Source: Punctularia strigosozonata HHB-11173 SS5 (Eukaryota > Basidiomycota > Agaricomycetes > Corticiales > Punctulariaceae). From it: a DNA stretch of 64,000 nt. Position numbers and translations under genes: made by a program. This document shows, piece by piece, positions 148 to 62,026 of this stretch (its first letter is position 1; every line of letters begins with the position of its first letter). A model generated the notes under the pieces. It was not told where the DNA came from and ran no database searches. It was given only the letters and a program-made list of their open reading frames with translations. The stretch spans positions 1,004,370-1,068,369 of the forward strand of contig NW_006767441.1 in assembly GCF_000264995.1 (NCBI RefSeq), given 5' to 3'.

Positions 148-271
148 AATGTCGTAGTTCTGTAGTGGATCACTGGAATGGGTGGCGAAACCTACTAGAG
201 ACAACCGGAGCGAGGATGGCAACGAAGACGCTGCATACAGTAAGCGTGTCCTAACAACAAGAACAGTATCG

Positions 272-3200: not shown

Positions 3201-3797
3201 ACCACTGCACATGGCCAACCGTTAGTTGAATATGCCGGTCGCCAACGCCCGACACTTGCCTCCCTCGGAGGCGCTAGCCATGTTGCGGTGACAACGCCGC
3301 TCCCTCTCGGTATGTCCCAAGACGGGCCTGGTTCCCACCAATCCGCCGATTGCAATCTCGGTCTTCGGTACCACAAGCAGCCCAGCCCGTCTCCCGAGCG
3401 GCCGGGAAAGTATGCAAAGAGGACGTCAGCCGTAGGCTTGACGACGATGACAGAAGGCGGTTCGTAGGCTGCTGGCGAGGAGAGGATGGGCCCGTGTGAC
3501 GGAAGCAATGGTGATTGTGTCGAGGAGGCGGATGTCGGCGGGAAGAACCGTCGTACGACTGCAGGTTGATGAGGGTGGGCAGCGAATATAGTATCAATGG
3601 ACGACCATGCAAGCGCCCTAGAAGTAGCTCCAACAGTGTCTTGCAACGGTATATAGAACGACAAACCTTTGAGCGCGTTCCGCCAAGGGATGGAGGTCCC
3701 ACCAGCCTATATCGACTGCTTCGTGTTGTCTCTCCTTGCCCTTCCTCGGGGACGACGCATGCATAGGAGGTGGGTCCGCTGGTACATCAGCGAACAT
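272..3797 (-). CDS. MED16: Mediator complex subunit 16 (Med16/Sin4)
   Basis: This is a tail-module subunit of Mediator, which links DNA-bound activators to RNA polymerase II in the nucleus. The chosen start at 3797 gives MFADVPADPPPMHASS and soon GWWDLHPLAERAQ. A 49-base intron then joins to RALAWSSIDTIFAAHP and later VLFAYFPGRSGDGLGCLWYR, the usual N-terminal pattern of fungal Med16 (GWWD, then WS, then LFAYFP with G.G..C.W). The C-terminus at 272-1405 ends with RCICGGSWIHSSV, the conserved terminal RC.CGG.W block of the family. Several short introns interrupt the middle and were not all resolved. The gene is divergent from PAC3, with about 150 bases between start codons. The call rests on motif recognition at both ends; the middle is divergent, as is usual for Med16. 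Confidence 0.8.
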
Positions 3798-3948
3798 ATC
3801 TTCCCAATAGTAGGACTAATGGTGGCTGGATGGTCGAGGTCGTATCTCGTGAAACAGACGCGTTTGCAGAGGTTTGCATGTGGCGCGACGACCATCTTAC
3901 ACTAACCCTCTCTCAGAACAACTACTCGGCGACGGCCAAACATCCATA

Positions 3949-4490
3949 ATGATCACATCGACTTCAAAATCTCGGGAGATCGCTGGTGTACCAACAGATG
4001 TCATCCTGCAACCATTCGCTGATCGCATTCTCGTGCTTATCACGCAATTGGGGAAAGTTGGCAATCTCGTCCGTGCATCGCCTTAGTCTACCGCGTCGCA
4101 GTGAATTCATCATGCGTACAGATACAAGCTACGATACCGGCCACAACCGCACTCCAGCCCGCTCCGTCGTCGGACGATACTCTTTCGGCCAGCGCTGCGT
4201 TACCTCCACCGCCGCCTACCATCCAGCTTACTCCGTTGCTGGGGGCTGCACCGTCGGAACACATCCGCACACTTCACTCTCTGTATGCATCACAAGCTGC
4301 TACGATCATCTGGTTTTCCGAGAATAAAGAAGTGCTCGGCGAAGTGCCTCGGAGGGGCGTGATTGTTGGTGTCGCCCTCAAGAAGCTTGGCGGGGATGAG
4401 ATCTTGGGGACATCCATATCTGATACCGAAAGGGAAACGTTCATGGGTGTAATGACCTTGCTCGGCGAAATGACGCAAGGACGCGAATGA
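3949..4490 (+). CDS. PAC3: Proteasome assembly chaperone 3 (PAC3/PSMG3; yeast Irc25-like)
   Basis: PAC3 pairs with PAC4 and helps assemble the alpha ring of the 20S proteasome in the cytosol and nucleus. Exon 1 (3949-4068) encodes 40 residues including IAGVPTDVILQPFADRILVL and ITQLGKVGNL. This lines up with the human PSMG3 segment CGVPTQVV..F...ILV.VTQFGKMGTL. A 53-base intron (4069-4121, donor GTCCGT) joins in frame to IQATIPATTALQP; a Pro/Ala-rich loop, then LLGAAPSEHI and WFSENKEVLG, follow. The C-terminal part GVIVGVALKK..ERETFMGVM fits the last strand and helix of the family. The protein is about 162 residues, longer than human PSMG3 (about 120), mainly through the Pro-rich loop and the tail. 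Intron removal is needed because a stop lies in the intron. Confidence 0.8.
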
Positions 4491-5576
4491 ATCAAGGACG
4501 CAAGCTTATACCCTCGCATGTGTGGGCCCTTCACGCTGAGTGCTTATACTTTTGATGACTAGCTGCATGCCATCATCCCCGACTCCCAATGCTCTCGACA
4601 GCCTTGCGAAACGCGTGGACTAGGCTGAGTGTATCGTAAATGGGGCCGACAAGCTCGGAGGCTGCGGCCCTATCGCTTGTGGGCCGGAAATACGGATGTT
4701 TTACTGACCCACGCCGAGAGTAGCGATGCTGTTTGAACTCCGGAACTCATATTACTACGGTAGCGCGGTGTATCCGGAATAGTAGTAGGTTCAAAGTAGG
4801 TCAAATCCTTCGATATCAGTTCGATATCTGGATACTATTTGTTGGCCCTGGTAAGACCGCATTAGGGCAGCGACAACCGGGTTTCTGACATGTCAGTCGT
4901 GCCAGCATCATGTCATAGCCGTGAAAGCCGCCGTTTCAGTGTCAGCGTCGGGAGTGGCCATGGCATGAGATCTTGGCGCGCCGGTTCGCGTCGGGGCTCG
5001 GGCGACGCCGAACCGATCAAGTCTCTTCTTCGAATCTGACCAGATCTGACTCGCCGTGCGCCGTTCCACCCGCTTAGGAGACCGCAAGATGCCCACCTCG
5101 TGCTCGTCGCGACTCATTGCTGTTCAGAAGGTCACTCAAGGAATCCGGATGGGCTTCCGCATGGCAAGCTAGAACGTCACCTGCTCGCGCTCATCGTCCA
5201 TGGTCGTTCTGTGTAGACCGGTCCTGCGACGAGAACGCTGGTATACGCGTTGCCCTGACATACACGCCAGCCGTCTCAGATCAGGCTAATCCAGAAAAGG
5301 ACACAAATAATCGCGCGGGTGGCGGGCACGCGGCGTCGGCGCGAACCCGAATATGGCAGTAACCCAATGAAATTCATTCTTCGCGGATCCCGATGTCATG
5401 GGCACGGCGTTTGCTGCCGTCGAGGACGGGCCCCATATATGTAGCTCCTGGAGCGTCGGTGGGGCAACCTCCCTCCCTCCCTTCGTTCCTTCCCCCCTCT
5501 CTTTGGCGTGGAGGCGAGCTCTCCTCGGTCCGGCCGTTCCCTGTCGTTGTCGTCGTGTGCCCTTGTCGCGTCTGGA
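4491..5576. other. Gene-free stretch with short direct repeats and palindromes
   Basis: No convincing coding sequence was seen in this 1.1 kb. It holds a cluster of small repeated words: TCCGGA at about 4739 and 4773, GTAGGTTCAAA followed at once by GTAGGTCAAA (4785-4805), TTCGATATC twice (4809-4817 and 4820-4828), and the perfect palindrome CTGACATGTCAG (4885-4896). Near 5465-5505 there is a strongly pyrimidine-rich tract, with a TATA-like CATATATG just before it. The arrangement resembles a promoter for the small gene at 5577. Confidence 0.4.
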
Positions 5577-6140
5577 ATGTCTGGTGGAGACGATTTGATA
5601 CCTTCCTTCAATATCTCGCTGTCGCAAGCCCGACATCAGCCGCTCCCTCTCTCTTCCGTCCAGAAGTCGACCATCAAAGAACGCAAACAGTTGTATGCAT
5701 ACACAATTTCTCCTTTGGCACTCCATTATACGATATTTGTGAGCCGGATTTTTCCGTAAATTGTTTGCGTAACCGACCAATAATATTTAGGAGGCAGACG
5801 AGCATGAAGCCGAAGACTCTTCCCTGAGATCCATACCGCCCACGCAGGTACGTCCCGCTTGGTGTGCCACTGCCTCGCATACCCACCCCGCCGTCCCGCC
5901 GTAGGAGCGATGTGGCAGCGAAAATACTGCGGAGAGCTCGCCCTCTGAGAATGGAAGTCAGGAAACACCCCGATCCAAGGTTTCCGCTAAAGTCAGTGCA
6001 AGATTCTTGCGATGCTACAAGCCCTGGCTGACGATGTCTTACAGAAAGTCCTCCGTAACATCACGGCTAGATGCCGCAATGGTATCCGCTGGCCCCCGAG
6101 TCGAAGAAACCCAGGTTCCGCTACGCATGCTGCGAATTGA
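5577..6140 (+). CDS. Small unknown protein, four exons (predicted)
   Basis: I do not recognise this gene. Exon 1 (5577-5738) starts MSGGDDLIPSFNISLSQARH and ends in a GTGAGC donor. Exon 2 (5791-5847) is acidic (EADEHEAEDSS). Exon 3 (5905-5979) is Ser/Glu-rich (ENTAESSPSENGSQETP). Exon 4 (6045-6140) is basic. The three introns (52, 57 and 65 bases) all lie in phase 0, with normal GT..AG ends and a CTGAC branch-like site in the last. The result is about 129 residues. Support is the consistent splicing and protein-like composition, not homology. Reading through the last intron gives another tail ending at 6189, so the C-terminus is uncertain. Confidence 0.35.
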
Positions 6141-6396
6141 CTTCAACACTACACTCCCTACAGTAATTAATCCCATTTTTAATATTTGACGCTGCTTTAT
6201 TGTACCACATAAGTATAATACACTTTCCGCAAAATGATGCACAAGCTGGTTGTCGCGTATGTGGCGTGTGTTTGTACATGTGGATGTTTCCCCGCGCGTC
6301 GGCACACAACGCGTCTCGATCGAAAGTCCCCACTGAATCATCCCTCTCCTCTCCTTTCCACGTACTTGTCAGTGTCCCAACCACGGAAAGATCATC

Positions 6397-7567
6397 ATGA
6401 GTCAATGTGAGGTAGTAAGTTCATGATGATTAGTCAATACTAAGGTGCACTAGTCGAAAACCCATACTACGGGAACTCTGGTGGGGGCGGTTACCTCGCC
6501 GGTGGCTCGCCTTTCGGTAGCCAAAACGGCAGCCCGGGCGGCTCAGGCGGAAAGGCGAGCTAACTATCCACTTGTTGGCTGTGTATGAGGCTCTCATCAT
6601 TTGTTTCAGCGAGTAGCTCAGCACACCCTGCGGCCAGTCACCGTCAAGCAGCTCAACGACGCGACGCAGGCACACTCAGATGCAGAGTGGTTCGTGGACA
6701 AAGCCGAGATTGGCCAAGTGAGTCTTGGATGCGACATTCCCGCTGTTTATGGCCTCAGACGGCCGAAAAGATCATGGTCGTTGCGATGGTCGCGTCGATC
6801 AACGCTCAAACGACCAACAACGTTTACTGGCTGGATGACGGGTACGGCCGCATTGAAGCAAGACTTTGGACCGACAACTCGAGCGAGGAAGATGCGGGAA
6901 AGTGGGGAGGGATCGAGTGAGTTCGTTCCCATATGGCCGAAACGTCCACAGGCTGAACGTGGTGACGAATAAGGGACTGGGACTGCGTATGCGTGACCGG
7001 TAGCTTGAAGACGTTCGGGAATCGGAGATACATCAATACGACACACATACGCAAGATCCCCGCCGACGAGGTCTGCGCCCAACTCTGCCATCACTTATAC
7101 CATGTGGCGTATGTGACGCTCTGTATCGAACGTGGTCCTGTGAGTTCGAGCGTATGTTATCCTTCCTTTCGCCTCTAACGCGAGTCAACAACGAAGCCTA
7201 ACGCGAACGGTCAAGCCCAAGCCACTTCCGTGTCAAACGGAGTGGGCGGCTCCTCGGCGTACACCATGCAATCGCACGGCGCGACGGACCAGTTCGGCCA
7301 CTTGCCCCCGCTGCAGCGGCAAATCATCAACTTCATCAGCCGTCAACCACCCAACAACGATGGCATACACGTTGCGGCCATCACGCGGGCTTTGGCCAAC
7401 GAGAGTGGCGTCGACGCTCACAAGATCAGGTGGGAAGCATGTCGCATGTACGTCAAATACGTGTTCTGATGTTCCTGCCTTTGTATAGCGACGCGCTGGA
7501 TTTGCTCATGGACGACGGCTTGGTGTTCACCACCATCGACGAATCGCACTTCAAGATCTCAGAGTAA
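6397..7567 (+). CDS. RPA2: Replication protein A 32 kDa subunit (RPA32)
   Basis: This is the middle subunit of the heterotrimeric single-strand DNA-binding protein RPA, acting in replication, repair and checkpoint signalling in the nucleus. Exon 1 is only 10 bases (6397-6406). After a 47-base intron it gives MSQFENPYYGNSGGGGYL, the Gly/Ser-rich phosphorylatable N-terminus of the family. The next intron (6555-6609) appears to have a GC donor and yields GGKRVAQHTLRPVTVKQL. The OB fold follows (AQTTNNVYWLDDGYGRIEAR, then VTGSLKTFGNRRYINTTHIR). The C-terminal winged helix is DQFGHLPPLQRQIINFI and, after another intron, DALDLLMDDGLVFTTIDESH, ending at TAA 7565-7567. All diagnostic RPA32 segments are present in order. 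A second RPA32-like gene lies about 5 kb downstream. Confidence 0.93.
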
Positions 7568-7815
7568 AATACGAATCAACACGGTATATTAAAGGTCTTG
7601 AGCTCATTTGTCCTGACTTCACGGTACTTCTCCGGTGCATGTAGCCGGGACGTGTAAGCCGTCACAAAACATTTATGCTGCATCCATGGAATCCATCACG
7701 CACGTTGACTTCAATGGGCGCATATAGTGGTGAGTGCGTGGAGTGGTGGTCTCGTCATTAGTAGAACTGCATGCGAATAGTATACATAATGCGAATATAT
7801 GCGTATGTGTCCAGT

Positions 7816-10800
7816 CTATGATGAATGCATGGTAGCAACCTTCTGCGCTCCCTTGGCCACGCCTTCCAGAAGCTTTTTGCGGGAGTCGGTCACCTTCTTC
7901 GCCACCCCCAGGACGAAGTCGTGATCGATCTACGGAGAGGGAGAATGTCAGCGAACGTCTTGTCTACATAGAATGAACTCACGCCAGCATCGATCACTGG
8001 CTTGCAAGCATCGACGAACTTCCTGCGGTCGTCTGATGTACCCTCTACTTCACTCAGCTTCAGCAGACGCGCTGACATGTCCTTGAAAACAGCCAAAAAC
8101 TTAGGTCGGAGGTCCTTGAAGCTGGCAACAAGCTGCAGGAGAAACATAAGCATGCCGAACACCTATGCACTCGTCCGATGTGGACCTACATTTCCGAGTT
8201 TATGCATCCGAACGACTGACGGAGATTTGAAGCGGTTCGTCTCGACGGTGAAGAATATAAGAGCCTAAACAACCAGGGTCAGATCAGCTCCAGTCTGAGG
8301 CTCGATGGAATAGGCATTGACCTCTTGCGTTAGTGTGAAAACATTGAGGATCTCATAAGGCAACGCCTTGCGTTCAACCAACTCGGTAAACTTCTGCTGC
8401 ATATCTAGCAGGCGTTGTCAATTCGGGAACGGTTTCATACGCGGGCTATTGCATACCGTTGAAGTACTTGAGCAAGATTTCCGGGGGTTCTTCAATCGAA
8501 GGGGGCTCATGATCTTTCGAGTGCCCATTGGACGTTCCGTTCTTTGGTACTGGGGGTATCTCGACGCCCTGCAGTGGCTTGCCTGTCCTCGCTTCGGACT
8601 GCTTCGCAGCTTCGGCGAGGACTTGCGCCGGCGGAGGGCGGGTGTGGTCATGCCATGGGCGGAGCCAGTCTCCGAGAGCGTTGCAGTATTGCATAAACGC
8701 AAGTTCATCGGGAGTTAGCTGCAGAATGATTAGATCAGACGCCACACGTCTGGCGAGTAATTCACCTCATCAGTTTCTTCCTGGTTCTTCTTGTGCAGGC
8801 GCTCGGCGAAAGAAAGTTTGCCTTCAGGATGGTTACCCGGCTTCGGCCGGTCACCGACCAGGAGTTTCTCTTCTACTGTCTCGTCCAAGTCGCTCGCATC
8901 CGAAAATGCTGCGACGTAGAGCTTTAGCATGACACGCAACCATCCGGGCTAGAGCGGACAGTCAGCTAGCGGTCCAAGACTGACGGTGCTTGGCACGCTT
9001 ACCCCAGGTCGTCGTCCAAAGAGAATAGTTCGTTCTTCGACAGATTTCCGGCATCTCGGATGATACTCTGGGAAAACGGTGAAGTCACGATTGTCGTGAG
9101 AGAAGGGAGTGGTGAATACTGTAAATGCGCGAGCATGAGCTATGCCACCGCTTTCGTTCGGTGAACTCACGGCGATCGAAATTGAGCTTAAGCTCGATTA
9201 GTTCCATATCAACGAGATCATTGGTAATCGGCTCATGCGTAACGCGCATGCGGACATGCTCGATCTTCATCAAGTCGCGTTGAAGTGAGTTCTCCAGCCT
9301 CTCCTCGAACTCGATGAAGTCCGGGACCTGCACAAAAGCACATCTATGGAGGAACGTCAACCGAAATAGATACCGACTCACCATGCTATACTTCTCCGCT
9401 GTGAATGCCCGCACGATGAACTCGGAAGTCTGACAGGGTCATCATGAGCTTCCCTAATATCCTACAAATAGATGAGCTCTCACCTCCTGCGAATTGCTGA
9501 CATAAATCTGGTTCGCCTCTAGGCACTCGGAGGATAGTGTGAGGTCGCCTATGGAGGTCAACGAGAAGATGGATGCTCGGGTGAGGACAAGATGCGACAG
9601 AGTGTCGTTCTGCATCTGCTTAATGTTGAGAGCACGATAGTGCTCCAGAGCAAGCTGGGGAGCACCTAGCGAGGAGGACGTCAATATAGCGACGAGAGGT
9701 GCCGAGGACCGTAAACTTACCGAGCAAGCGGTAGATCCTAATCAACAATAATCTGATCAGGTACGACTGCTTGCTTTTTGAGGACGCAAACTCCAAGAAC
9801 GAGGCAGCATTCTGCAGGTGAACATCATCCTGAGTGGTCGCCCATAGCCCGATGTATGCATCACCCGCGAGTACTGCAAGATCGTCCGCTGGTTGCAGCT
9901 CGGTATCAGGCAGATCTTTCCCGAGGCGAAGACCAATCGAATAGTATTGAATATATTGCGCTGCACGAGCAATTTCCTGCTCCGTCGACAACTCCGCCTC
10001 CGTCAGGTTGTGCCGTATGAACTTGAAGATGTTGATCGTTCTAACAAGATCTTTGGTCGTCTCCTGTGCTCACAAGTTCAGACCGTGCCGACGGAGAGAG
10101 CAGGGGACTCACGGACGAAAGTTGCTTGGACTGCAGGAAAGACGACCAGCGACTCAGACGATCACCTTCTAGCCCAAGATATGGTCGCAAATCCTCGAAA
10201 CAGCAGGCTTTGTCGCCGTAGACGTCGAAATACTTCTCCATGGCTGCAACGACATCCTCGGGGTCTTGGCAGAAACATTAGAATACGAATAGAGACATTG
10301 CTCGATGGATTCCACAAACCTGTAGACAATCCGTGTGATGAAGTCCTGTTTGCGAGGTCCACAAGGGCAAGACTCGCCGACCGATCCTTAAGCCCATCTT
10401 CTGCAGCGATGTGGGCCAAGAATTCTCGCGTTTCGGCGACGTGTCTTGCACATTTCTCCCTCGCGTCTGCATCTGCGGCGGATCGCAAATACGAAAACGT
10501 CGCATCAAGTATGGACAGGAATTCCAACCAGTTCCTGTCGCTGCACAGCTATGAGCGGTCCGCAATTCAGGATATATGGTTTTGACTGTACTGCTGGTCC
10601 GCTATCCGCTGTTTCGCGAGCTCGCCCTCTTCAATCCACGAGCCACGCTCTTGCGCGATTTCGCGCCGCAATGCATCGCAATGCAAGCTGGTGTTGCAGA
10701 TGTTCTTGCCCAGCTCTGTATCTAACATTGATTGCGCTTCATCCCACGCCTTCAACTCCCGAAGCACTGTCAGATGAAGGTAAAAACGGTCTGCCAGCAA

Positions 10801-34674: not shown

Positions 34675-36159
34675 ATGCCCGAGCGGCGTCGCTCAGACTC
34701 GCCGGAATGGACGGACGCGGACGCGTACGTCGGCGACGATGACGACGAGTTCTTCCGCGAGCTCGACGGGCGACGCTTCAACGCGATGGTGCCCCGATAC
34801 CTGCTCCCGGCGGACGAGGACGAGATCCGAGTGAGCTACCACTCTTCGCCGTCCTCCCGGATCCTAGGGTCCATGGGCCGTATGCTTGGCTTCTGTGCTG
34901 ATTGTCTGCCGCCGCCGGCCCATGTTATACATATAGCGTTATGAGCTTTTTCATCGGATGTTCCAATTCGTGGCGGACGCGAACTATGTCGGGCCAGTGA
35001 GGGAGGTGCTTGTCGACTCGACTGCGAGTCGACGCAAGCGCGTGCTGGACGTTGGAACCGGGAGCGGCCAATGGTACGATCTACTGCTGTGATTCTATTA
35101 TGCGGATGGCTCAGGTCATGATAGGGCAATCGAAATGGCGGATGAGTTCCCGAAGGTCGATGTGGTAGGATGCGACTGTGCACCTATCCAGCCAAGGTGA
35201 GGGTTGCACTGATGTCTTCCATCAGATCTTCAGCTCATGTTTCCTTTGCGTAGAGAGGTCCCCCCAAATTGCACGTACGTATCGGGCGCATCGCGCACAT
35301 ATAACCCCGTCCGACTGACCTGCTGCTGCCCCCAGATTCGAGCTCTGCGACGTCTCGGAAGGGCTGCCCTACCCAGATGCGTGCTTCGACCTCGTCCACG
35401 CGCGTTCCATACACATCGGTGTAAGTGCACAACGCCCAATTCGTTACGCTCGCCATCGTCAACGTTCGTCACCCCACCCACCCAGATCTCCGATTACCCC
35501 CGCTTCATCCGCGAAGCAGCGCGCGTCCTCCGCCCGGGCGGCCTGCTCATCCTCATCGAGCCTGACGTGCGGCCCGACACGATCCTCGGCAAACGCCCGC
35601 CGTCCTCGATCGCCTTCCCGACGCCGTCGCACGGCGCGAGCGGCACGCCGGGCTGGACCGCGCTCGTGAACGCGCAACGGCGCGCGCTCGAACGGCTCGG
35701 CGTCGACCCGGACGTGCCGCACAAACTGGGACAGATCGTCGTGCGCACCGGCGCGTTCGACAGGCCGCGCACGATCGCGCTCGAGGCCGACTGTCCCGTC
35801 GGGTTTCACCCCAAAGGTACGTATATATGTCATCGTCTTCCGTCATGTTCTTTGATATAATAGCACGTCGCTCACCCCGGGCCCAGATCCCACGCTGCTG
35901 TCTATAGGCCAGCTGGCGTGGATGAACTACGATCTGCTGCTGCCGGCGCTCAGGACCTACCTCGCTTCGTCCGACCTGCCCGACTGGCAGATTGACGTCC
36001 TCATAGAGGTGAGCGACGCTTCTCGAGCGGCCGGCGTTGACTGTTGCATTAACCAGGCGTTTCTGTTGCCAGGATGCTCAGCGGGATCTGTATTATCCCG
36101 TCGTTCGACTCTCGTGTCGATTACATATCGTACATGCAATAAGATCGGGTCATCCGTAA
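34675..36159 (+). CDS. SAM-dependent class I methyltransferase
   Basis: This is a small-molecule-type methyltransferase of unknown substrate, in the broad TAM/LaeA-like fungal family. The N-terminus is acidic (PERRRSDSPEWTDADAYVGD). Spliced exons give motif I RVLDVGTGSGQWAIEMADEF, then VDVVGCDCAPIQPREVPPNC, an acidic-loop block FELCDVSEGLPYPDACFDLV and the post-motif YPRFIREAARVLRPGGLLIL. The 3' region has HKLGQIVVRTGAF and IGQLAWMNYDLLLPALRTYL. The last exon ends with TAA at 36157-36159. Codon use is very GC-rich in the central exons. No biosynthetic cluster genes flank it, so a secondary-metabolite role is not supported by context. Confidence 0.8.
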
Positions 36160-36710
36160 AAAGATGTGTTTACTCACACAGGGCTGCGTCGCCTTCTCGA
36201 CTTCTGTTACTATACAACTCCCCCCTCATTAGGGGCTAATCCAATTTGCAATCTACACTATCGTTGTCTGATCATGCGGGACGTAGATTTCATTGCACAC
36301 GACCGGGCCCTTAGCTAGCTACAGGGGAAGAGCGCGCGATGGGATGATAGAGGGGGAAAAAACAGGCAACGAGGACAGCAAATAAGTACACATAAAGAGG
36401 AAGATGGTAATTGCGAGAGGAATATGTGCGTTGCGTTACGTGCTATAGGGTTGGGCATGAAAGACGATGGACGGGCCGGGATGGAAGAGGTTGCCTCGTC
36501 GGGCCGCCGGGGATCGTTAAAAAAACAAGCTCGTGATCTTGTGCCGTTCATCGTCAAATATTTCCTGCATGCCGCCCCACGCCAAGAGGTATGTGACTTG
36601 CGGGGCTCGCCCCGATACCCTGAAATCTGTAAAAACCGGAGAGGAAAAAGATGGGAGGAAGGGAGGAATGCCGTTCAAGAAGTGTCATGTACAGTGTTGG
36701 CATGTACAGT
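36160..36710. other. Intergenic stretch between convergent genes
   Basis: No gene is seen in these 550 bases. It is presumably the 3' untranslated regions of the methyltransferase and of the secreted barrel protein. Several open frames exist but they lack protein-like composition. Confidence 0.4.
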
Positions 36711-37729
36711 TTAGACAAACTCCCAGTCGATGGCGACCATGCCCTCGGCCTCGGTGGCGATCTGAGTGAAGGCACCAACGGAGAGGTCGATCGAGTTGCT
36801 GTTCTCGCAGGTCGGGCAAGCGTCAGCAATGGTGACGGTGACCGACTTCTTGTTCTTGGTGTTGGTGATCTTCACCTGCTTGCCGCAGAGGGAGGATGCG
36901 ACGCCGGTGTTGCCGTAGCGGTCGACGTCGATGGCCGCGATCAGATCGCTCTCAGCGTGGACCTTGCCGCAGGCACCAGCAACGCTATGGGAGAAAGGGT
37001 GGTGATTAGAGGGCGAGGCGGTGCGATGAAGATGGGAGCAACATACCCGTTCTGGTAGAAGAACGTGGCGAAGCCGCCGGTCTGAACGGAGCTGGAAGTG
37101 GTGGCGGCAGGGGCAGAAGACGAGTGCTTGGTCGACGTCGCCTTGAAGGTCGTGGTGGGAGCGGCGGTGGTGGTCGGCGCGGGCGTGGAGGACGTCTTGG
37201 GCTTGGCGGAGGACGTCTCAGGCTTGGCCGACGAGGTGGCCGGGGCGGCGACCGAAGTCGAAGCAACTACCGAAGAGCTCGCAACGGTGGTGTGAGCGAC
37301 GGAGGAGGTGGCGACGTGAACGGTGGAGGAAACGGCAGAGCTCGTGTCCTCATCGTCGCAGTCCTCATCGTCATCATCACCGTCATCCTCATCGTCGCAG
37401 TCCTCGTCGTCGTCATCGTTGTCAGAGGGGACGACAGTGGAGGTCGGCTCCGCGGCGCTGGCAGAGGCGGATGCGGATGCCGAGGGAGTGCACTGCGAGG
37501 GGCGCGAGGAAAGGCTCTCGTGTGCCAGGAGCGGGTGGCAGCACTGGTCGAAGAACGTGGTGCTGTGCTTGGTCTGGCACGAGAGGGCGAGGTAGCGAGT
37601 GTGGTAGGTCTGGTACGGCTCGAGGTAGTCGGTCGCCCAGCCGGCGGGGGGCGTCGCGCGGGGCACGACGAGGGCCGATGCCGAGATGGCAAGGGCAGAG
37701 ATGGAGAGGGCAGAGATCTTGGAGAACAT
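36711..37729 (-). CDS. Secreted double-psi beta-barrel (expansin/barwin-like) protein
   Basis: This is a likely cell-wall or extracellular protein. Residues 1-20 form a signal peptide (MFSKISALSISALAISASA), and a dibasic-like PR follows. A Cys-containing segment (LSCQTKHSTTFFDQCCHPLL) comes next. A very acidic tandem block (DDDDEDCDDED twice) follows, then a Ser/Thr/Pro/Ala linker typical of O-mannosylated stalks. The C-terminal domain begins TGGFATFFYQNGVAGACGKV and has SDLIAAIDVDRYGN, SSLCGKQVKI and TVTIADACPTCENSNSIDLS, ending EGMVAIDWEFV. This is the RlpA-like barrel with the Y/F-QNG..GACG start and the conserved D.CP.C. One 62-base intron (36985-37046) lies at the NG-VAG join. Total is 318 residues. 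No catalytic activity can be inferred. Confidence 0.85.
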
Positions 37730-38382
37730 TGTGCTTGGTATGTTGGCTGGTTAAATTCTACTGGTAGAGACTGGGGGTGACTGGAGTCGTGAGTGAGCGG
37801 GTTAAGAAGTGAACGACGGGGCCGGAGCGGCGTGTGTGGAACTGGAGATGGACAAGTGGTTAGCGCCGAACGGGACAAGGCGATGGACGGTTTGACTGAC
37901 CGGAGAAAGGGAGGCGGAGGGAGATGGAAGCCGCGAGGGCAGGGATGAATGAAGGGAATGGGGACAGCAGCGGGCGCGAAGGCCTTGCCCTTATAATAGT
38001 AGCCCGCTCCTCAACTTCCCACGTTTGCAGATTCGCCGGCGGTCTGCGCTCGCCGGGGCAGGCAGGCGCGTTGCTCAGTACGTGTTTTTTCTTCCCTCGA
38101 CATTTTTTGGGGTGGGCGCGTCTGCACCGATCGGTGTGACCAACGACGACCGACGCCCCTTTCTCGTCGCCGAGTCTGACTCTGAGCGAGGTCAATACAA
38201 TAGGCGCCGATGGAGCGCCGAGTTCGCGTAAGGCCGAGACCGAGCGCTCCGCCCCGACAGGGCAGCGCTGCGGCAGGGGCTGTGTCCGTCTCAGGAACGT
38301 GTCGCTTTGACCTCACCAGAACAACCGTGCTGGCACGCAGCACCTCTCCAGATACATACCCCGATACTGTTGACGACCAATC
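37730..38382. promoter_or_regulatory. Shared upstream region of the barrel protein (-) and SCAMP (+)
   Basis: This divergent intergenic region of about 650 bases has a TATA-like TTATAATAG at 37991-37999. On the minus strand it is followed by a pyrimidine-rich tract (about 37900-37975) and then a branch-like CTAAC and CTCCAG acceptor near 37840-37865. That layout suggests a strong promoter and a possible leader intron for the secreted protein. A long minus-strand open frame across 38011-38829 is judged an artefact. Confidence 0.4.
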
Positions 38383-52711: not shown

Positions 52712-53923
52712 ATGGCTGTACCTTCCAGTACACTACCAGACCCTGATGTCAAATCTGGCTTGAATTATTGGGCGAACCAGCCCGCGAACTACGACGGCGT
52801 TCTCGGTTAGCTTCCAACGTGTGCTCGGCCAATTCTGTTGTATCTGAACATGCATTCAAAGGCGGTTTTGGCACTGGTGTACGCCTTCTTGACCATGTCC
52901 CCTGGTGCATACCTGATCATTGACGTACCATTGATACCCCATTACAGTCTCTACCTCGCATCGATGCCCTGACATCAAGACAGTTACTCCTATATCTTTT
53001 CCCAGAGCTCTGCACCGTAGCATCGACTAGCAAGCCCTTGAACAGACCTCAACGTGTTGGTGACGCCGAGCCTCAGCGTCGTCGAACTCGTGCATTGGAC
53101 GTCGGGGCAGGGGTTGGCAGAGTGACAGCTGATGTGCTACTGCACGTCTTCGACGATGTACTCTTGGTAGAACCTGTCGATCAGTTCATCCAAGAGGCAT
53201 ACCGCCGAGGAAATGCCTCGGCGGCGCCCTCCGGAGATCTTGCCGACGCCAATGAAGCGGAAGGATATAGCACGCGATGGAAAGCGATCAAAGAGGAAAC
53301 GAAGAGCGTAACCTTTGTCCGGTCCACACTTCAATCCTTCGAACCTGGTCGTGCGGATGCATCTGCAATCATTGGTCGGGTGGGATACCAACCTGGCCCT
53401 CCCAAATCGGCTGTGGAGGGCGCTTCATACGAAGACATCAACTCCGGTTTCGACGTTATATGGTGCCAATGGTGCCTTGGTCATCTATCCGACCCAGAGT
53501 TGATCCAATTTCTCGGGCGTGCCGTTGGCGCGCTGCGTGACCGCAATCAAGCTGCTGGAGAGAATCCAAGCTGCATCGTTGTGAAAGAGAACCTGTGCAG
53601 GGACTTCGGCGAGGATGGCGTGGAAGCGGAGAGCGGGAAAAGGGGCCCCCGAACGGTGTTCGACGAAGAAGACTCAAGTCTGACAAGGTGAGATCCGCCG
53701 CTCTGAGTGCGCCTCATGTTTTCCTCACGCTCCTCGCTGCAGGTCCGATTTGGCATGGAAAGCTGTATTTTCTGCAGCAGGCCTTACCGTAGTGCGCGAA
53801 CAACTGCAGCTTGGTTTCCCCGAGGGTCTGTATGATGTGAAGATGTGAGTGGCAGGTCGTAGTCTCTAAGACGGCGTATTGATATCCCATGCTTGTAGAT
53901 ACGTACTACGACCGCGAAAGTAG
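52712..53923 (+). CDS. NTM1: Protein alpha-N-terminal methyltransferase (NTM1/Tae1)
   Basis: This enzyme methylates the alpha-amino group of proteins starting X-Pro-Lys, including ribosomal proteins. The start gives MAVPSSTLPDPDVKSGLNYW and ANQPANYDGVLG. Introns join to GGFGTG and SLPRIDALTSRQLLLYLFPE, the N-terminal signature of the family. Motif I is RALDVGAGVGRVTADVLLHV, followed by LLVEPVDQFI. SGFDVIWCQWCLGHLSDPEL and CIVVKENLCRDFG are further family blocks. The last exons give RSDLAWKAVFSAAGLTVVRE, then LQLGFPEGLYDVK and YVLRPRK at TAG 53921-53923. An acidic insertion (EAEGYSTRWKAIKEETK region) lies between motif I and the substrate-site block. Complete and in the right order. Confidence 0.9.
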
Positions 53924-54308: not shown

Positions 54309-57300
54309 ATGGACAGTAGCCAAGCCTTACGTCTGGACCGCCTTTCCAAACTATTCGAGAATATTCTTCGCGGTAGAGACAAGGTTGGCAAGCAAAACTA
54401 TACGACCTTTCTCGAAGCCATGTGCACGCAACCGGATCCGCCGACATGCATCAATAAAATTTGCAGCTCCTCCTGTGGCTTATCCAGTCTCCAGAGCGCA
54501 ATGCGCGTCGAGCTTTCGCCCACCTTCTGTAACGGCCGCGGAGCGGAAGTCATCCAGTATTTGACCTGCCAGGAGCTCACCGTCATCGGCGGCGGAGAGC
54601 TCCTGAAGCAGGTCCTGCTGGCCATCGTCGAGCCATCTTTCTTCTGGTCGGCCTATGTTACAGCATTCCGTCAAGGCAAGCTGAGCGAGAATTCCCAGCA
54701 CGCTTTCGCGTGGCTTCTCCTGCAGCTCGTCTCCCTCCCAGATGAACAATCCGTTCCATACCGCGAGCTTGCCGAGGACGGCAGCCTGGTACAGGCATTA
54801 CTAGGTGCCCCCGTGCACGATGTGCGCGTGCTTGGCGAACGTATCAAACACGTCCTAGAGCTCTATGCCTCCGGAACCGTGCTCGATGAGCAAGGCCCTG
54901 GAGGTCGCCACGACAACGATAAGGTGAACTTCCGGGAGATATCTATCCTACCCACTGCAGATGAGATCACCTCGAGAGAGGCCCCTTTCCTTCGCACAAG
55001 CTCTGCCCTGGACCATCCCGACGGCGAGGGCAATCAGGTCGCGGATTACCTCGATAACCAATTTCGATTACTGAGGGAAGATATGTTGTATGAGATGAGG
55101 GAGGAGTTGGACATCGCGATGGGACGCAAGCGCAAGAATCATCGCAACTTTCCCGTAGACGGTCTACGATTGCAGGACGTATTTCATGCTCCTGCCGACC
55201 CTAGCAACATGTCGAAGCGCGACAAATGGTCCATATCCCTTCAGCGGATGTATGGTTTCCCCCAATTCAAGAGCATTGCCGCGGACGGAGTTAAGAAGCG
55301 TATATCATGGTTGAAGGACAACCGCTGGTTTCTCAAGCATGGCTCGATGGTATGCATTCTCATTGATGACGAACTCGTTGGATTTGCGACCCTCCGTCGC
55401 GATGAGGATCTGCTGGCCCAGAAGCTCCCGATCATTGTTCTTCAGCTTGAAGGCCAGGCCACCACGGTCAAGGCGTTGATCAGGCTGAAGTCAGCCAAGA
55501 CGATAAAACTGCTCCAAATCGACACTGCGCTTTTCGCATTTGAACCCATTTTGAAGGCTTTGCAGCACACGACCACCTTCCCCCTCAATCGCCATTTGAT
55601 TTTCTGGGATCAAGGCGAATCATCGCCTCTGCAACCGCAGAGCGGACTGGTCAAATCTATTCTGCGTTCCCCTGGGCAAGATCTCGGACCTCTTCTAGGT
55701 GTTTCCAAACCCATAGTCCTCGACAAGTCGCAGAGTTCAAGCCTGGTTATGGGTCTCACTCATTCCGTGTCTCTTATTCAGGGTCCTCCAGGTATGGTTC
55801 GGCTATATCCGGCTACCAAGGATAGCTAATCATTATACAAGGCACGGGCAAGTCCTTCATAGGAGCCTTACTGGCAAAAGCCCTTCATGATAACTCAGAA
55901 ACCATCCTTGTCGTCTGCTACACGAATCACGCCCTCGATCAGTTTCTGGAGGACCTCTTGGATATTGGCATTCCCGAAGCAAGCTTGGTTAGATTGGGCA
56001 GTAATTCGACGCCAAGGACCGATCCTATCTCGCTGTTCAACCTCACGAAGTCATCTAATTTCAGATTTGGTCGCGGTGATTGGACGACGATCGACAATCA
56101 CAGGAAGCGTCTTGGCACATACGAACAGGCGCTCAAAGGCGCTGCTGATCGATTCCAGCGGACGGCTGTGAGGAACGCGAACATCTTGGAATATCTGGAA
56201 TTCGAGGCGCCTGATTTCTACCGGGCTTTTTTGGTCCCTAAGGCCGCAGATGGCATGCGTCAAGTGACGAGGAAAGGTAAAGAGATCCAAGACGACTTCC
56301 TCTTCTACCAATGGTCAAAAGGATACGATGCTGGTCTCTTCAAGAACCATGATCATGTCAAGGAGGCTACGGATATCTGGCAGATGCCCCTTGAGTCTCG
56401 ACTCGCAAGGATCGCGTCGTGGAAGCATGAGCTGCTCAAGGAGCAGGCCCTCCGTATTCACACACACGCCACAGACTACAACTCTCACGTAGATCGTCTT
56501 GATCACAAGTTTGACCAGAGGAATCGCGAAATCATTGCGTCCAAACGCATCATCGGCTGTACTACTACTGCCGCGGCCAAATATCGAGAAGCAATCAAGG
56601 CAGCCGCCCCGACTGTTCTGCTTGTGGAAGAGGCGGGCGAAATTTTGGAGAGTCATATCATTACCGCACTCGGTTCCAAGACCCAAAAGCTCGTCTTGAT
56701 TGGGGATCATAAGTAGGTTTTCAGACCGCTTCGATGGTGATGGCACTTAGTATAAGTGCTCAGGCAATTGCGTCCGAAGGTCAACAACTATAAGCTCACT
56801 GTAGAAAAGGGCGAAGGTTACGACTTGAACCGCTCCTTGTTTGAACGACTCGTTATCAAAGGCTTACCTCACGAGACGCTCCAGCGACAGCATCGCATGC
56901 GACCCGAGATTTCTGCTTTGGTTCGACATCTAACGTATGCGGACCTTTCTGACGCTCCTTCCACGTTGAAACACCCCGACCTGCTCGGCGTTCAGGATAA
57001 CGTTGTGTTCATACATCACGAGAAACCAGAGGATGACCTCAGAGAGGCATCCGTGCTGGGAGGGGAAGACGAGGTGATGGGTAGCAAGTCGAGCAAGAGG
57101 AACGCTCATGAAGTCTCCATGGTCCTCAAGATCCTTCGTTACCTCGGCCAGCAAGGATACGGAACGGACAAAGTAGTGATACTGACACCATATCTCGGGC
57201 AATTGCGAGCGCTCCAGCAGGCCCTGAAAGAAGACAACGACCCGGTCCTGAATGATCTGGATTCCGCCGATTTGGTCCGCGCGGGGCTCGTGACTGAGGC

Positions 57301-60300
57301 AGCGGCCAAACTCACCAGAAAGCCCATTCGCCTCGCGACTATCGGTGGGTGACATCAATTCAGAGTGATGTAAGATCATTGACATCCTGCCAGATAATTA
57401 CCAGGGAGAAGAAAGTGACATCGTGATCGTTTCGCTCACTAGGAGCAACCCCGAGCATAACATCGGCTTTATGTCGTCGGGGGAGCGCGTCAATGTCATG
57501 CTATCTCGTGCCAGGAATGCTCTCATAGTTATCGGCAACGCGGACACCTTCCAGCACGCTCGGAAGGGTAGTGAAGTCTGGCAGAAGCTGATTCTGAAGC
57601 TTCGAGCCGATGGACACATATACAACGGCCTGCCTGTCAAATGCGAACGTCACCCGACGCGGCGCATCGTTCTTGCCAGCCCGGACGATTTCGATACTCA
57701 CGCTCCTGAGGGCGGCTGTACAAGGCCTTGGTGCGTCCTGGTCATCGCAGGCTATACGCATTACAACCTACTGATGCGATGATTGACAGTGGTGCGAAGC
57801 TACGCTGTGGTCACATTTGTGTCTCCAGATGTCATCAAATATATGATCATTCCAAGATGGCATGCTCGCAGATTCTGTACTCCAAATGCTCGAAGGGGCA
57901 TGACCAACAATGGCAATGTCCGACCGGCACTCCGGACTCTTGCGTCAAATGCGACAAAGACCACAAAGATGCAGAGATTAGGAAGAATGAGGAGTTTGCC
58001 CGCAAGGAGAAGCGAGAGCGGGAGGAACGGGCACACGCTCGCAAGTTGCTTGAATTGGAGAGTCGCATGAAGGAGCAACAGGAAAAGTTGAGAGATGCTC
58101 AACTTGCGCAGGAGCGAAACCACGCGATAGAACGAAAGCGTCGCGATCTAGAGGATATCACCAAACTCGCTCAGCAGAACACTCATGGTCATGGTATCGA
58201 CACGAAACTGTCTGTAGCATCCGAGTCGCCAGTTTGTCCACCACGCATTGATGACCAGTCGACCGCGGCATCTTCATCTCAAACGAGCGTCGTATTGGCT
58301 CCCACTCAACCCTCGACGGCGGTTCAGACTCCCGTATCGAATGCGTCCTCCGGAACAGCGACGGGAAAAAGGACCTCGTCCGCGGAAGAGGAATGGCAGA
58401 GGCAAAAAACAATAGACGGAGAGAGCAACGAAGCCATTGATGCCATCATGGAAATGACCGGCCTGGCAGCGGTGAAGTCGCAGATTCTTAGCATCAAGGC
58501 AAAGGTAGATATCGCTAGACGCCAGGGCGTGCCGCTGAAGGACCGTTGTAACTTCGCTCTAGTCGGTAATCCTGGAACGGGTAAGTTTGATCATACTATG
58601 TGTCCTGCTAGACTTTGATCCGCTTTCTATTCTCTGTAGGCAAGACCACCGTTGCACGCCATTTCGCTCGATTTCTAGCATCTGCTCAAGTAATCACGGG
58701 CAACCAATTCGTCGAAGTAACAGGCTCAGGCCTCGCCAACGAAGGAGTCCCAGGAATAAAGAAGCGCATTGAAGGTATCCTGGAAGCGGGTGGAGGAACT
58801 CTGTTCTGCGACGAAGCGTATCAGTTGACCGCTCGACCGAATGCTGCGGGCTCGCAGGTGATGGATTATCTCCTTGCTGAAATGGAGAATCACCTTGGCA
58901 AGATCTCGTTCATCTTCGCCGGATACAACAAAGAAATGGAAACTTTTTTCGACCATAACCCAGGTCTCACTAGTCGTGTACCTTACAAGCTGCGGTTTGA
59001 GGACTACAGCAACGAGGAGCTCATGGACATGATGGTAAAGAAGATCGACAAGGATTTCTCCGGGCGTATGAAGGTGGAAGGGGACCACGGCATCCGGGGA
59101 CTTTACGGGCGCATTGCAATCCGTCGTTTGGGCAGGGGGAGAGGGCACGATGGCTTCGGTAACGCTCGCGCCCTTGAAAACTTACTCTCAGCGATACGCG
59201 AGCGCCAAGCACGTAGGGTGCAAGAAGGACGTCGCGCTGGACGTCGCGCCGACGATTTACTGCTGGTCAAAGAAGATCTTATAGGACCAGATCCGTCCAC
59301 GGTCATGTCTGAGAGCGCTGAGTTGAAGAAGCTCGACTCCATGATCGGCCTGAGTGCGGTCAAGAAATCGGTGCAGAACCTCTTCAGCATGGTGAAGACG
59401 AATTACGAACGCGAATTGGACGAGAAAGCGCCGATACAACTTAGCCTCAATCGATGTTTCGTAGGCAAGTTTATTCTTTCATAGCGTCGTATATAGCACG
59501 CCACTCATATTCCCTATCCCAGGTCCTCCAGGAACTGGTAAAACGACGGTGAGCAAGTTATATGGCGCTATTCTCGCAAATCTCGGTATGATAAGCAACG
59601 GCGAAGGTTTGCGCCATACATTTGACGGTTGACATCCAGAGATTGATTCATAAATCCCAGTTGTCGTGAAAAATCCCGCGGATTTCATTGGCAGTGCTCT
59701 AGGGCAGTCCGAAAGCCAGACCAAAGCGATTCTTGCAAACACTGTGGGGAAGGTTCTCGTCATCGACGAAGTCAGTACGGCTTAGTTGCTTGTGCTCCAT
59801 GCTGACCGAAAATTTAGGCATATATGCTTTACGGCGGTTCGAACGGGGGTGTCAGCGACCCCTACAAAACAGCTGTTATCGACACCATAGTCGCTGAGGT
59901 ACAAAGTGTCCCCGGGGAAGATCGTTGTGTATTGCTGCTGGTACAGTCCTGTCTCTCTGCTTGTGACCGAGCTTTGATACGTGATGCAACAGGGTTACAA
60001 GGATCAGATGGAGGAGATGTTCCAGGTATGAACAGTAAGTACATGGTGGGAGAGCGGGGGGCTAAACGACTTCTAGAATGTTAATCCAGGCCTGTCAAGA
60101 CGTTTTGCAATCGAAGATGCCTTCGTGTTTGAAGATTATACCGATGCCGAGCTCCGGAAAGCGCTGGTGAGCTGATTTATTTCCTGGTACACTTGTTCTC
60201 ATCGCCGCACTCTACAAGGATTGGAAACTGAAGGATCAAGACCTTCTGGCAACGGACGCTGCAAAGGACGTCGCTACTGACGTCCTAAGTCGCGCTCGTA

Positions 60301-62026
60301 ATCGCCCCAATTTTGGAAACATTGGCGAGGTCGAGAACCTTCTTACGGCTGCTAAAGTTCGTTATCAAGAACGCCAGGCGGCGATGGCTGTCGGACATCG
60401 GCGTGGCATCAACGTTCCCTTAGAGCCCCAGGATTTCGACCCCGATTACCAGCGTGCCGAGCATGCTGCCACACATCTTGCCAAGCTATTTGAAGACGTG
60501 GTGGGCTGCGATGCTATCGTTGCACAGCTCAGCAAATACCAGCAGATTGCTCGGAATGCGAAATCGAGGGGCCGGGAACCACGGGACCTCGTGCCAACGA
60601 ACTTCGTCTTCAAAGGGCCTCCAGGTTTGTTTCTGTGTCCAACGACATGATTACTGTGAACTGACATGCACGTATATAGGTACAGGAAAGACAACAACAG
60701 CGAGAAAGATATCACAAGTCTACTTTGATATGGGGTTTCTATCGTCAACGGAGGTCATCGAATCCTCGGCCAGCGATTTGGTCGGTCAATATGTCGGGCA
60801 GGTATGCGATGGTTCTCGGCGACGGAGAATTCCGCGTACTGACTTTCGTCAAGACAGGCCCAAAGACGAAGAAACTACTCGAGAAGGCGCTGGGTCGCGT
60901 GTTGTTCATCGACGAAGCTTATCGTCTAAGCGAGGGCCATTTCGCCAAGGAGGCCGTGGATGAACTCGTCGGCCTTCTGACGCAGGACGCGTACCGTGGA
61001 AGACTGATCGTTGTGCTGGCGGGTTACGACAACGAGATGAACGAGTTGCTCGCCGTCAATCCCGGCCTCTCAAGTCGCTTCCCGCACGAAATCCAGTTCT
61101 ACAATTTGAACCCTGCTCAATGCCTTGAGATCCTTCGCAAGGAACTGGCAAAAAACCTAATTAGCGTCGATGCTTTGGACGACGTTACTATACCCGAGTA
61201 CGGCACGATGGAGGTCCTCCTAGCGGATTTATCAGCATTGCCGTCTTGGGGCAATGCTCGAGACGTCAAGACGCTGTCGAGAGATCTTGTCGGACTGGCA
61301 TTCGAAACTTGCGAAGATGCCTCTGCGCACGACGGTCGTATCTTGCTATCATCTCTACACGTCATTGACCGCATCAAGGCGATGCTCGATACCCAGCGAA
61401 GGCGGCATATTCCTGCACATTCTGCAAGGACGGACACAGGGTTGCTGGAACAGATTCTGGCGCCAGACCGACCCACCGCTAGGCGAACCTCGACTCGAAC
61501 AGTTCAGTCGACTTGCAATGCTCCCCCGCCACCGTCTCAAGAACTTCAAGGGAAACCCGATGGTCCTCGCGATCCCGGCGTCAGCGATGCGGTCTGGGCG
61601 CAGCTGCAGGCGGACAAAGCAGCGGAGGAGGAGACTCGCGCCCGCGCTCTGAGAGAGTTGGACATGCTGGAACAAGAATGTGAAAGACGTCAACAACGCG
61701 AGGAAGAGTCCAGACGGGAGCTGGAAGAGCTTGAGCAAAGCCCATCTGCAGACGATCTCGAGGATTCTGAGCGGAAACGTCGACATGAAGCAGCCAGACT
61801 TCGAGAGCTCGAAGCGAAGACGGCGCGAGCAAGAATCGCGAAGGAGCTCGAAGAGAAACGGAAAGAAGAAGAGCGCCAACGAAAGGAGGAGGCGAAGGTC
61901 CAGGCGAAGTTGAGAGAAATGGGCGTCTGCGTCGCTGGGTTCCGCTGGATCAAGCAGCAGGCGGGATATAGGTGTGCTGGAGGGGCTCACTTCATCGATA
62001 ACGCATCGTTGGGCCTTTCAGGTTGA
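54309..62026 (+). CDS. ZNFX1-like SF1 helicase fused to three CbbX/SpoVK-type AAA+ domains
   Basis: This giant protein (about 2,340 residues, about 13 introns) joins an NFX1/ZNFX1/Hrr1-like RNA helicase to an AAA+ triplet. Residue positions are approximate. 1-490: helical region beginning MDSSQALRLDRLSKLFENIL. 490-1050: SF1 core with Walker A GPPGTGKS, motif II LLVEEAGEI (VEEA, as in ZNFX1), LVLIGDHKQLRP, DNYQGEESDIVIVSLTRS and VNVMLSRARNALIVIGN; all look intact. 1060-1145: Cys/His cluster (GGCTRPCGAKLRCGHICVSR). 1150-1210: coiled coil. AAA1: GNPGTGKTT (about 1350) and TLFCDEAYQL. AAA2: GPPGTGKTT (about 1630) and VLVIDEAYML. AAA3: GPPGTGKTT (about 1910), VLFIDEAYRL and the arginine-containing NPGLSSRFPHEI. 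2200-2300: charged coiled coil. The end is GVCVAGFRWIKQQAGYRCAG. RNA-related or stress/defence roles are inferred from ZNFX1 relatives only. The intron at 59465-59522 appears to be GC-AG. Confidence 0.9.

What the first reader, a model, noticed from the sequence alone, without database searches (positions are those of the whole stretch)
54309..62026. A ZNFX1-like RNA helicase and three CbbX-type AAA+ motors in one polypeptide
The sequence shows four intact P-loop cores in one spliced frame: an SF1 helicase with the VEEA motif II seen in ZNFX1, then three AAA+ modules with GxPGTGKT and DEAY. Animal ZNFX1 is an antiviral RNA sensor, and the fission yeast relative Hrr1 acts in RNAi. CbbX/SpoVK AAA+ proteins remodel protein complexes and do not belong to the ZNFX1 architecture. 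The combination suggests an RNA-sensing part coupled to a protein-remodelling motor, perhaps in RNA silencing or genome defence. The function is inference; similar fusions may already exist unnamed in fungal databases.
Basis: partly seen in the sequence, partly recalled or inferred. Interest (0 to 1): 0.78.

Follow-up and report, generated by a model that had tools for sequence, protein, structure and literature searches.

The report
Fungal helicase fused to AAA+ chaperone motors
This is a real, very large fungal protein that joins an RNA helicase of the ZNFX1 kind to three protein-remodelling motors; fusions of this kind have already been noted in print, and what they do in the cell is still unknown.

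Summary
A 14-exon model over exactly 54309-62026 gives one open frame of 2342 aa: a helical N-terminus, a ZNFX1-like SF1 helicase, one NFX1-type zinc finger, a linker, three SpoVK/CbbX/EccA-clade AAA+ modules, a coiled coil and a short Cys/His-rich tail. The joint is firm: single exons carry helicase-to-finger and finger-to-AAA1. Among solved structures ZNFX1 matches the helicase best (4.6e-93, against 2.9e-31 for UPF1), and CbbX or EccA1 match each AAA+ module best. The same genome holds a truncated paralogue with remnants of AAA3 and the tail after a stop codon, which suggests that the fusion predates that duplication. The fusion is not new in kind: Delerue et al. 2023 (PMC10659427; passages read) already place eukaryotic proteins with an SF-1 RNA helicase in this AAA+ clade. 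Added here: only AAA3 has the CbbX threading tyrosine and AAA2 lacks the sensor-2 arginine, so the modules are probably unequal. Best reading: an RNA-docked, dedicated chaperone for an RNA-protein complex. The link to RNA silencing is inference.

The parts
54309..62026 (+). whole gene, 14 exons, 2342 aa
   Evidence: spliced model without internal stop; each of the 13 introns would bring a stop or frameshift if retained
54309..54872 (+). N-terminal helical domain, residues 1-188
   Evidence: AlphaFold2 ten-residue block means 56-88 here, all helical; only weak armadillo-like structural matches, best E 0.023; no Pfam match in residues 1-470
54921..55718 (+). pre-helicase region alignable to ZNFX1, residues 205-470
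   Evidence: phmmer alignment to 9q9z begins at residue 205
55719..57551 (+). SF1 helicase core, residues 471-1031
   Evidence: AAA_11 and AAA_12; best solved relative ZNFX1 9q9z
56624..56635 (+). helicase motif II VEEA, residues 756-759
   Evidence: aligned with VEEA of ZNFX1 9q9z
57690..57952 (+). one NFX1-type Cys/His-rich finger, residues 1078-1145, split by the intron 57731-57789
   Evidence: aligned with the finger segment after the helicase of ZNFX1 9q9z; no Pfam match on its own
57790..58580 (+). exon 5: bridges zinc finger, linker and start of AAA1
   Evidence: single open exon
57968..58444 (+). charged, probably coiled-coil then disordered linker, residues 1151-1309
   Evidence: sequence composition; no Pfam match over a cut-off
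58445..59256 (+). AAA+ module 1, residues 1310-1560
   Evidence: CbbX 3zuh 2.5e-29; pore loop 1 aberrant
59344..60440 (+). AAA+ module 2, residues 1590-1850
   Evidence: CbbX 3zuh 2.4e-29; no pore tyrosine, sensor-2 arginine replaced by glycine
60492..61327 (+). AAA+ module 3, residues 1868-2110
   Evidence: EccA1 9lur 2.2e-32, CbbX 3zuh 1.1e-28; pore tyrosine kept
61550..61909 (+). C-terminal coiled coil, about residues 2185-2304
   Evidence: sequence composition only
61910..62023 (+). C-terminal Cys/His-rich tail, residues 2305-2342
   Evidence: 68% identical in the contig 25 paralogue; no other match in the genome listed at E<=1; no Pfam match

Best explanation
The gene encodes an RNA-docked protein-remodelling machine. 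Shown: one open frame carries a ZNFX1-like SF1 RNA helicase with intact ATPase motifs, an NFX1-type finger, and three SpoVK/CbbX/EccA-clade AAA+ modules with intact Walker A, Walker B, sensor-1 GY and the last arginine of NPGLxxR. Inferred: the helicase and finger bind or translocate on RNA and bring the AAA+ part to an RNA-protein complex; the three modules form half of a six-module ring with a second chain; module 3, the only one with the CbbX threading tyrosine, pulls on a peptide of a partner, while modules 1 and 2 mainly bind or hydrolyse ATP and hold the ring. The result would be assembly, activation or disassembly of one particular RNA-processing complex, as CbbX does for Rubisco. An RNA silencing or RNA surveillance partner is the likeliest client because of the helicase's kinship, but no client is shown.
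For: One spliced frame with bridging exons. Helicase best matches ZNFX1 9q9z, 4.6e-93 against 2.9e-31 for the next, UPF1. Modules match CbbX and EccA1 and SpoVK/CbbX/EccA families. Pore loop: module 3 DLVGQYVGQ against CbbX DLVGQYIGH; module 2 DFIGSALGQ; module 1 GLANEGVPG. The CbbX pore-loop-1 tyrosine (Y114) is needed for activase but not ATPase activity (PMC5437159, passages). PMC10659427 says that the characterised members of the clade are chaperones with narrow targets and that eukaryotic members, with an SF-1 RNA helicase domain, are predicted to act in RNA processing (passages). Genome has Piwi and RdRP genes. C. elegans ZNFX-1 and S. pombe Hrr1 work in RdRP-linked silencing (PMC9276528, passages).
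Against: No expression, biochemical or genetic data; no client known. A second gene region with ZNFX1-type fingers exists on contig 3, so function cannot simply be carried over from ZNFX1 or Hrr1. The contig 25 paralogue keeps a 1167-codon open helicase-finger frame without AAA+ modules, so the helicase part may work alone. The ring model rests on kinship of the modules only; the arginine of NPGFR in CbbX and NEGLR in EccA1 is T or S in 3 of 3 modules, and module 2 lacks the sensor-2 arginine.
Confidence: 0.5

Rival explanations
1. The AAA+ part is mainly a scaffold or oligomerisation platform that clusters helicases on RNA, with little or no threading; the helicase is the working part.
For: Two of three modules lack the threading tyrosine and module 2 lacks the sensor-2 arginine. 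A paralogue with an open helicase-finger frame lost nearly all of the AAA+ part. C. merolae CmP is a mostly structural red-type activase subunit (PMC5437159, passage).
Against: Walker A, Walker B and sensor-1 are intact in 3 of 3 modules, and module 3 keeps the full CbbX-like pore loop.
Confidence: 0.25
2. Antiviral or transposon sensor: the helicase-finger part recognises foreign RNA and the AAA+ part acts as a signalling or effector ring.
For: Mammalian ZNFX1 recognises viral RNA and nematode ZNFX-1 acts in silencing (PMC9276528, passages). In prokaryotes, type III-A CoCoNuT defence operons, predicted to target RNA, encode a UPF1-like SF1 helicase and in some cases a SpoVK-family AAA+ ATPase as separate genes (PMC11090510, passages). 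Neurospora NCU05861 (NF-X1 finger helicase) and NCU09357 (ATPase, helicase) are listed among rapidly evolving sex-associated genes with QDE-2 and an RdRP (PMC3571971, passages); whether those two carry AAA+ modules was not seen.
Against: No nuclease, TIR or protease domain appears among the Pfam families shown (25 of 52, nearly all P-loop families; none over a cut-off in the stretches scanned apart). No infection data. NCU09357 is also described as a conidiation-specific gene (PMC11708020, passages), which is not a defence role.
Confidence: 0.15
3. Gene-model artefact: two neighbouring genes, helicase and AAA+, joined by mistake.
For: No RNA-seq was available.
Against: Exon 5 runs open from zinc finger to AAA1; the contig 25 paralogue has AAA3 and tail remnants downstream of its helicase in the same order; eukaryotic proteins of this kind are in print.
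Confidence: 0.03

Closest known systems
Eukaryotic SF-1 RNA helicase proteins of the SpoVK-CbbX-EccA clade noted by Delerue et al. 2023 (PMC10659427)
   Same: SF-1 RNA helicase domain N-terminal to AAA+ of this clade; predicted role in RNA processing (passages).
   Different: The figure with architectures and organisms is not held, so number of AAA+ modules, NFX1 finger and C-terminal tail could not be compared.
ZNFX1 / ZNFX-1 / Hrr1 / SAD-3 / RnhA helicases
   Same: Helicase core, motif II VEEA, pre-helicase region and the finger after the helicase align with ZNFX1 9q9z.
   Different: Carries three AAA+ modules and shows no RZ finger in the stretches scanned. Reported lengths of SAD-3, Hrr1 and RnhA are 1160, 999 and 1231 aa (PMC5384783, passages), too short for the AAA+ part.
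CbbX (red-type Rubisco activase) and EccA1
   Same: AAA+ core, DEAY, GY and the last arginine of NPGLxxR; module 3 pore loop.
   Different: Three modules in tandem; modules 1 and 2 have altered pore loops; no Rubisco or secretion context.
Type III-A CoCoNuT operons (PMC11090510)
   Same: A UPF1-like SF1 helicase and, in some operons, a SpoVK-family AAA+ ATPase in one RNA-directed system (passages).
   Different: Prokaryotic, separate proteins, with a McrBC-type GTPase core; no homology test was made here.
Bacterial tandem SpoVK-like proteins with beta-helix N-termini
   Same: Two AAA and two AAA_lid_6 stretches in 3 of the 7 frames scanned with Pfam (L142, L143, L144).
   Different: N-terminus is a right-handed beta-helix in 6 of 7; AAA_11 and AAA_12 are listed in 0 of 7 (weak P-loop cross-hits such as RuvB_N and SLFN-g3_helicase fall on the AAA+ residues).

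Membership tests
SpoVK-CbbX-EccA AAA+ clade (criteria from PMC10659427) | Tyrosine in sensor-1 as a GY signature | tested here: met
   GY in 3 of 3 modules, invariant with CbbX and EccA1
[quoted passage not shown]
   Asn in 3 of 3, but the residue 4 further on is T, S, S instead of the R of CbbX and EccA1; the R 6 further on is invariant in the 5 rows, and bacterial SpoVK-like modules also vary at +4. Which R the authors mean was not settled.
SpoVK-CbbX-EccA AAA+ clade (criteria from PMC10659427) | Second arginine finger (sensor-2) in the lid | tested here: inconclusive
   GNAR in modules 1 and 3, GNIG in module 2: arginine in 2 of 3
SpoVK-CbbX-EccA AAA+ clade | AAA_lid_6 (PF17866) lid | tested here: met
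   2 stretches for 3 modules; the only 2 hits listed in the genome, exon by exon
CbbX proper | NCBIfam equivalog cut-off of TIGR02880 (459.25 bits) | tested here: not met
   117.8-133.1 bits for the three modules
ZNFX1 family (helicase) | SF1 helicase closer to ZNFX1 than to UPF1, SEN1, AQR | tested here: met
   316.2 bits against 111.5 for UPF1 among solved structures; no tree was built
ZNFX1 family (full architecture) | RZ-type finger at the C-terminus | tested here: not met
   no PF20173 match in the C-terminus; a contig 3 piece has one, 28.8 bits against a cut-off of 27
ZNFX1 family (full architecture) | Array of several NFX1-type fingers (recalled, not from a call) | tested here: not met
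   one finger-like segment seen, residues 1078-1145; Pfam calls none there
ZNFX1 family | Role in RNA silencing or RNA sensing | not testable with these tools
   needs genetics

The most novel reading that the evidence does not exclude
A self-contained RNA-triggered remodelling engine: RNA engagement by the ZNFX1-like helicase switches on an asymmetric AAA+ pseudo-hexamer built from two chains, in which only the third module threads substrate, to load or strip protein from silencing complexes (Argonaute or RdRP). None of my 10 paper searches listed a chaperone of this clade acting on an RNA silencing machine.
Probability: 0.15. Interest if true: 0.7.

Novelty: new member of a known kind. Interest (0 to 1): 0.38.

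Why it matters
If the remodelling model is right, a chaperone clade known from Rubisco repair, spore wall synthesis and type VII secretion also works on RNA-protein complexes in eukaryotes, and the covalent link to a ZNFX1-like helicase names the kind of complex to look at. The asymmetry of the three modules and the natural AAA-less paralogue in the same genome give direct handles for a test. As a domain combination it is already in print, which limits the surprise.

Tried and rejected
In 0 of these 80 loci did an AAA+ module, the N-terminal region, the finger or the tail match by tblastn at 1e-3, but flanks are at most 6 kb or end with the contig. I picked 32 of the 80 genomes by hand; AAA_lid_6 was found in 10 of 32, at 19 places. 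Of the 19 loci, with about 1.5 kb flanks, 16 gave a frame with both ATPase motifs and 0 of 16 showed a helicase match, though many frames are cut. Seven whole frames, chosen by me mostly for length, list neither AAA_11 nor AAA_12. So no bacterial fusion was seen, in a small sample.

Viral relatives: the helicase alignment (86 pattern matches) and AAA3 (1 pattern match) gave no confirmed relative in viral contigs. AAA3 matches 11 phage records, all under 60% identity; of the 10 listed, 5 carry an annotation under the match other than 'no annotation', among them 'AAA family ATPase' and 'stage V sporulation protein K'.

Tree of the AAA+ modules (20 rows: 3 window, 15 bacterial, CbbX, EccA1; 3 of 19 loci gave no frame and 3 duplicate frames were skipped): not resolved. 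The three window modules sit on very long branches and no starred group holds them, so neither tandem duplication nor separate origins is shown.

N-terminal structure: mean pLDDT 48.9 with three sequences; only about residues 1-188 are above 50 throughout most of their length; no PDB match at E<=0.001.

C-terminal tail as an RZ finger: rejected, no Pfam match. It is a conserved Cys/His motif of unknown kind.

Contig 3 gene as a full ZNFX1 orthologue: not shown. Four of its 8 pieces have no Pfam match, one helicase exon matches 9q9z at only 22.7 bits, its 571-aa C-terminal piece matches no solved structure, and I built no splice model or tree for it.

Survey of fungal proteomes: not possible; no eukaryotic collection is held.

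Literature: all 10 searches used. From titles and abstract starts, none listed a functional study of a eukaryotic helicase-AAA+ protein of this kind; most subscription papers are missing. Passages in PMC11091397 and PMC6770048 only name ZNFX1-like genes in expression tables, PMC4660213 did not settle the arginine finger.
Full report
Observation. Splicing 14 exons between 54309 and 62026 gives 2342 codons without an internal stop. Each of the 13 introns is short (47-59 nt), 12 are GT-AG and one GC-AG; if left in, 11 would bring an in-frame stop and the other 2 would shift the frame. The important point is the joint: exon 4 holds helicase motifs V/VI and the first half of the zinc finger, exon 5 the second half, the linker and the start of AAA1, so the fusion does not depend on a doubtful splice between two genes.

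What the parts are. Among solved structures the helicase half is far closer to ZNFX1 (9q9z, 316.2 bits, 4.6e-93) than to UPF1 (111.5 bits, 2.9e-31), aquarius, SEN1 or SMUBP-2; the match comes in three stretches, residues 205-567, 668-938 and 972-1145, that is the region before the helicase, the core, and the finger after it. The AAA+ modules match CbbX and EccA1 best: module 1 CbbX 2.5e-29, module 2 CbbX 2.4e-29, module 3 EccA1 2.2e-32. NCBIfam gives SpoVK first for modules 1 and 3 and CbbX first for module 2, all far below the equivalog cut-offs: clade members, not CbbX. About residues 1-188 are predicted as a helical domain with moderate confidence and only weak armadillo-like matches. The linkers have no Pfam match over a cut-off.

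The three modules are not equal. Walker A, DEAY, sensor-1 GY and the last arginine of NPGLxxR are kept in 3 of 3. The pore-loop tyrosine that CbbX needs for remodelling but not for ATPase activity (PMC5437159, passages) is kept only in module 3; module 2 has alanine there and lacks the sensor-2 arginine; module 1 has an aberrant loop. This suggests one threading module and two that bind nucleotide and hold the ring; that is inference.

Relatives in the same genome. A paralogue on contig 25 is 50% identical to residues 3-1151 (590 of 1179 columns, corrected splice) and 58% over 678 columns of helicase and finger. It reads open for 1167 codons to a stop just after the finger. Beyond that stop, in the same order and frame, lie a stretch matching the end of AAA3 (38% over 84 residues) and the C-terminal tail (69% over 35), with a second in-frame stop between them, and with AAA1, AAA2 and most of AAA3 missing. 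The simplest reading is that the fused form is older than this duplication and one copy has shed the motors. No other AAA_lid_6 match was listed in the genome at E 0.1 (2 hits, both in this gene; domains split by introns can be missed). Pieces in a row on contig 3 carry a CCCH finger and an RZ finger over the cut-offs and a sub-threshold ZNFX1-domain match, so a gene there is nearer to ZNFX1 in finger content. Against its being the better ZNFX1: four of its 8 pieces have no Pfam match, one helicase exon matches 9q9z at only 22.7 bits, and the C-terminal piece matches no solved structure. Orthology is not shown either way. The genome has 14 Piwi and 16 RdRP exon-level matches.

Prior knowledge. 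[quoted passage not shown] That is this architecture in kind; the figure is not held, so the details could not be matched. I therefore call it a new member of a known kind. PMC5384783 (passages) reports Neurospora helicases NCU09357 and NCU05861 as more distant from the SAD-3/Hrr1 cluster; PMC3571971 (passages) lists both among rapidly evolving sex-associated genes next to QDE-2 and an RdRP, while PMC11708020 (passages) names NCU09357 as conidiation-specific. Whether either has AAA+ modules was not seen. PMC11090510 (passages) describes prokaryotic type III-A CoCoNuT operons, predicted to target RNA, with a UPF1-like helicase and in some cases a SpoVK-family ATPase as separate proteins, a parallel pairing worth noting.

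Mechanism. I favour an RNA-docked, dedicated chaperone of an RNA-protein complex (0.5), over a scaffold (0.25) or a sensor with a signalling ring (0.15). Shown are the parts, their intact ATPase motifs and their joint; inferred are RNA binding, ring formation, threading and the client.

Limits. No eukaryotic collection, no transcripts and few subscription papers were available. The absence of bacterial fusions rests on 80 loci with limited flanks and 7 whole frames.

Noticed in passing
L025 (G000 contig 25) about 4858-9436, minus strand: Paralogue with an open helicase-finger frame of 1167 codons, a stop after the finger, and remnants of AAA3 and the C-terminal tail beyond it.
   Followed up: partly
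L026 (G000 contig 3) about 215-8661, minus strand: Second ZNFX1-like gene region with CCCH and RZ fingers; the helicase exon tested matches ZNFX1 only weakly.
   Followed up: partly
window 61910-62023: Short Cys/His-rich C-terminal motif conserved between the two paralogues, with no other match listed in the genome and no known Pfam family.
   Followed up: partly
window 59465: GC-AG intron in the first codon of the AAA2 Walker A motif.
   Followed up: no
window 52924-53688: Neighbouring open frame matches the proline di-methyltransferase family PF05891.
   Followed up: no
window 36001-38000: Strong GC skew (+0.248) and short tandem repeats at 37187-37717.
   Followed up: no
L142, L143, L144: Bacterial proteins with a beta-helix followed by two SpoVK-like AAA+ modules in tandem.
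   Followed up: no
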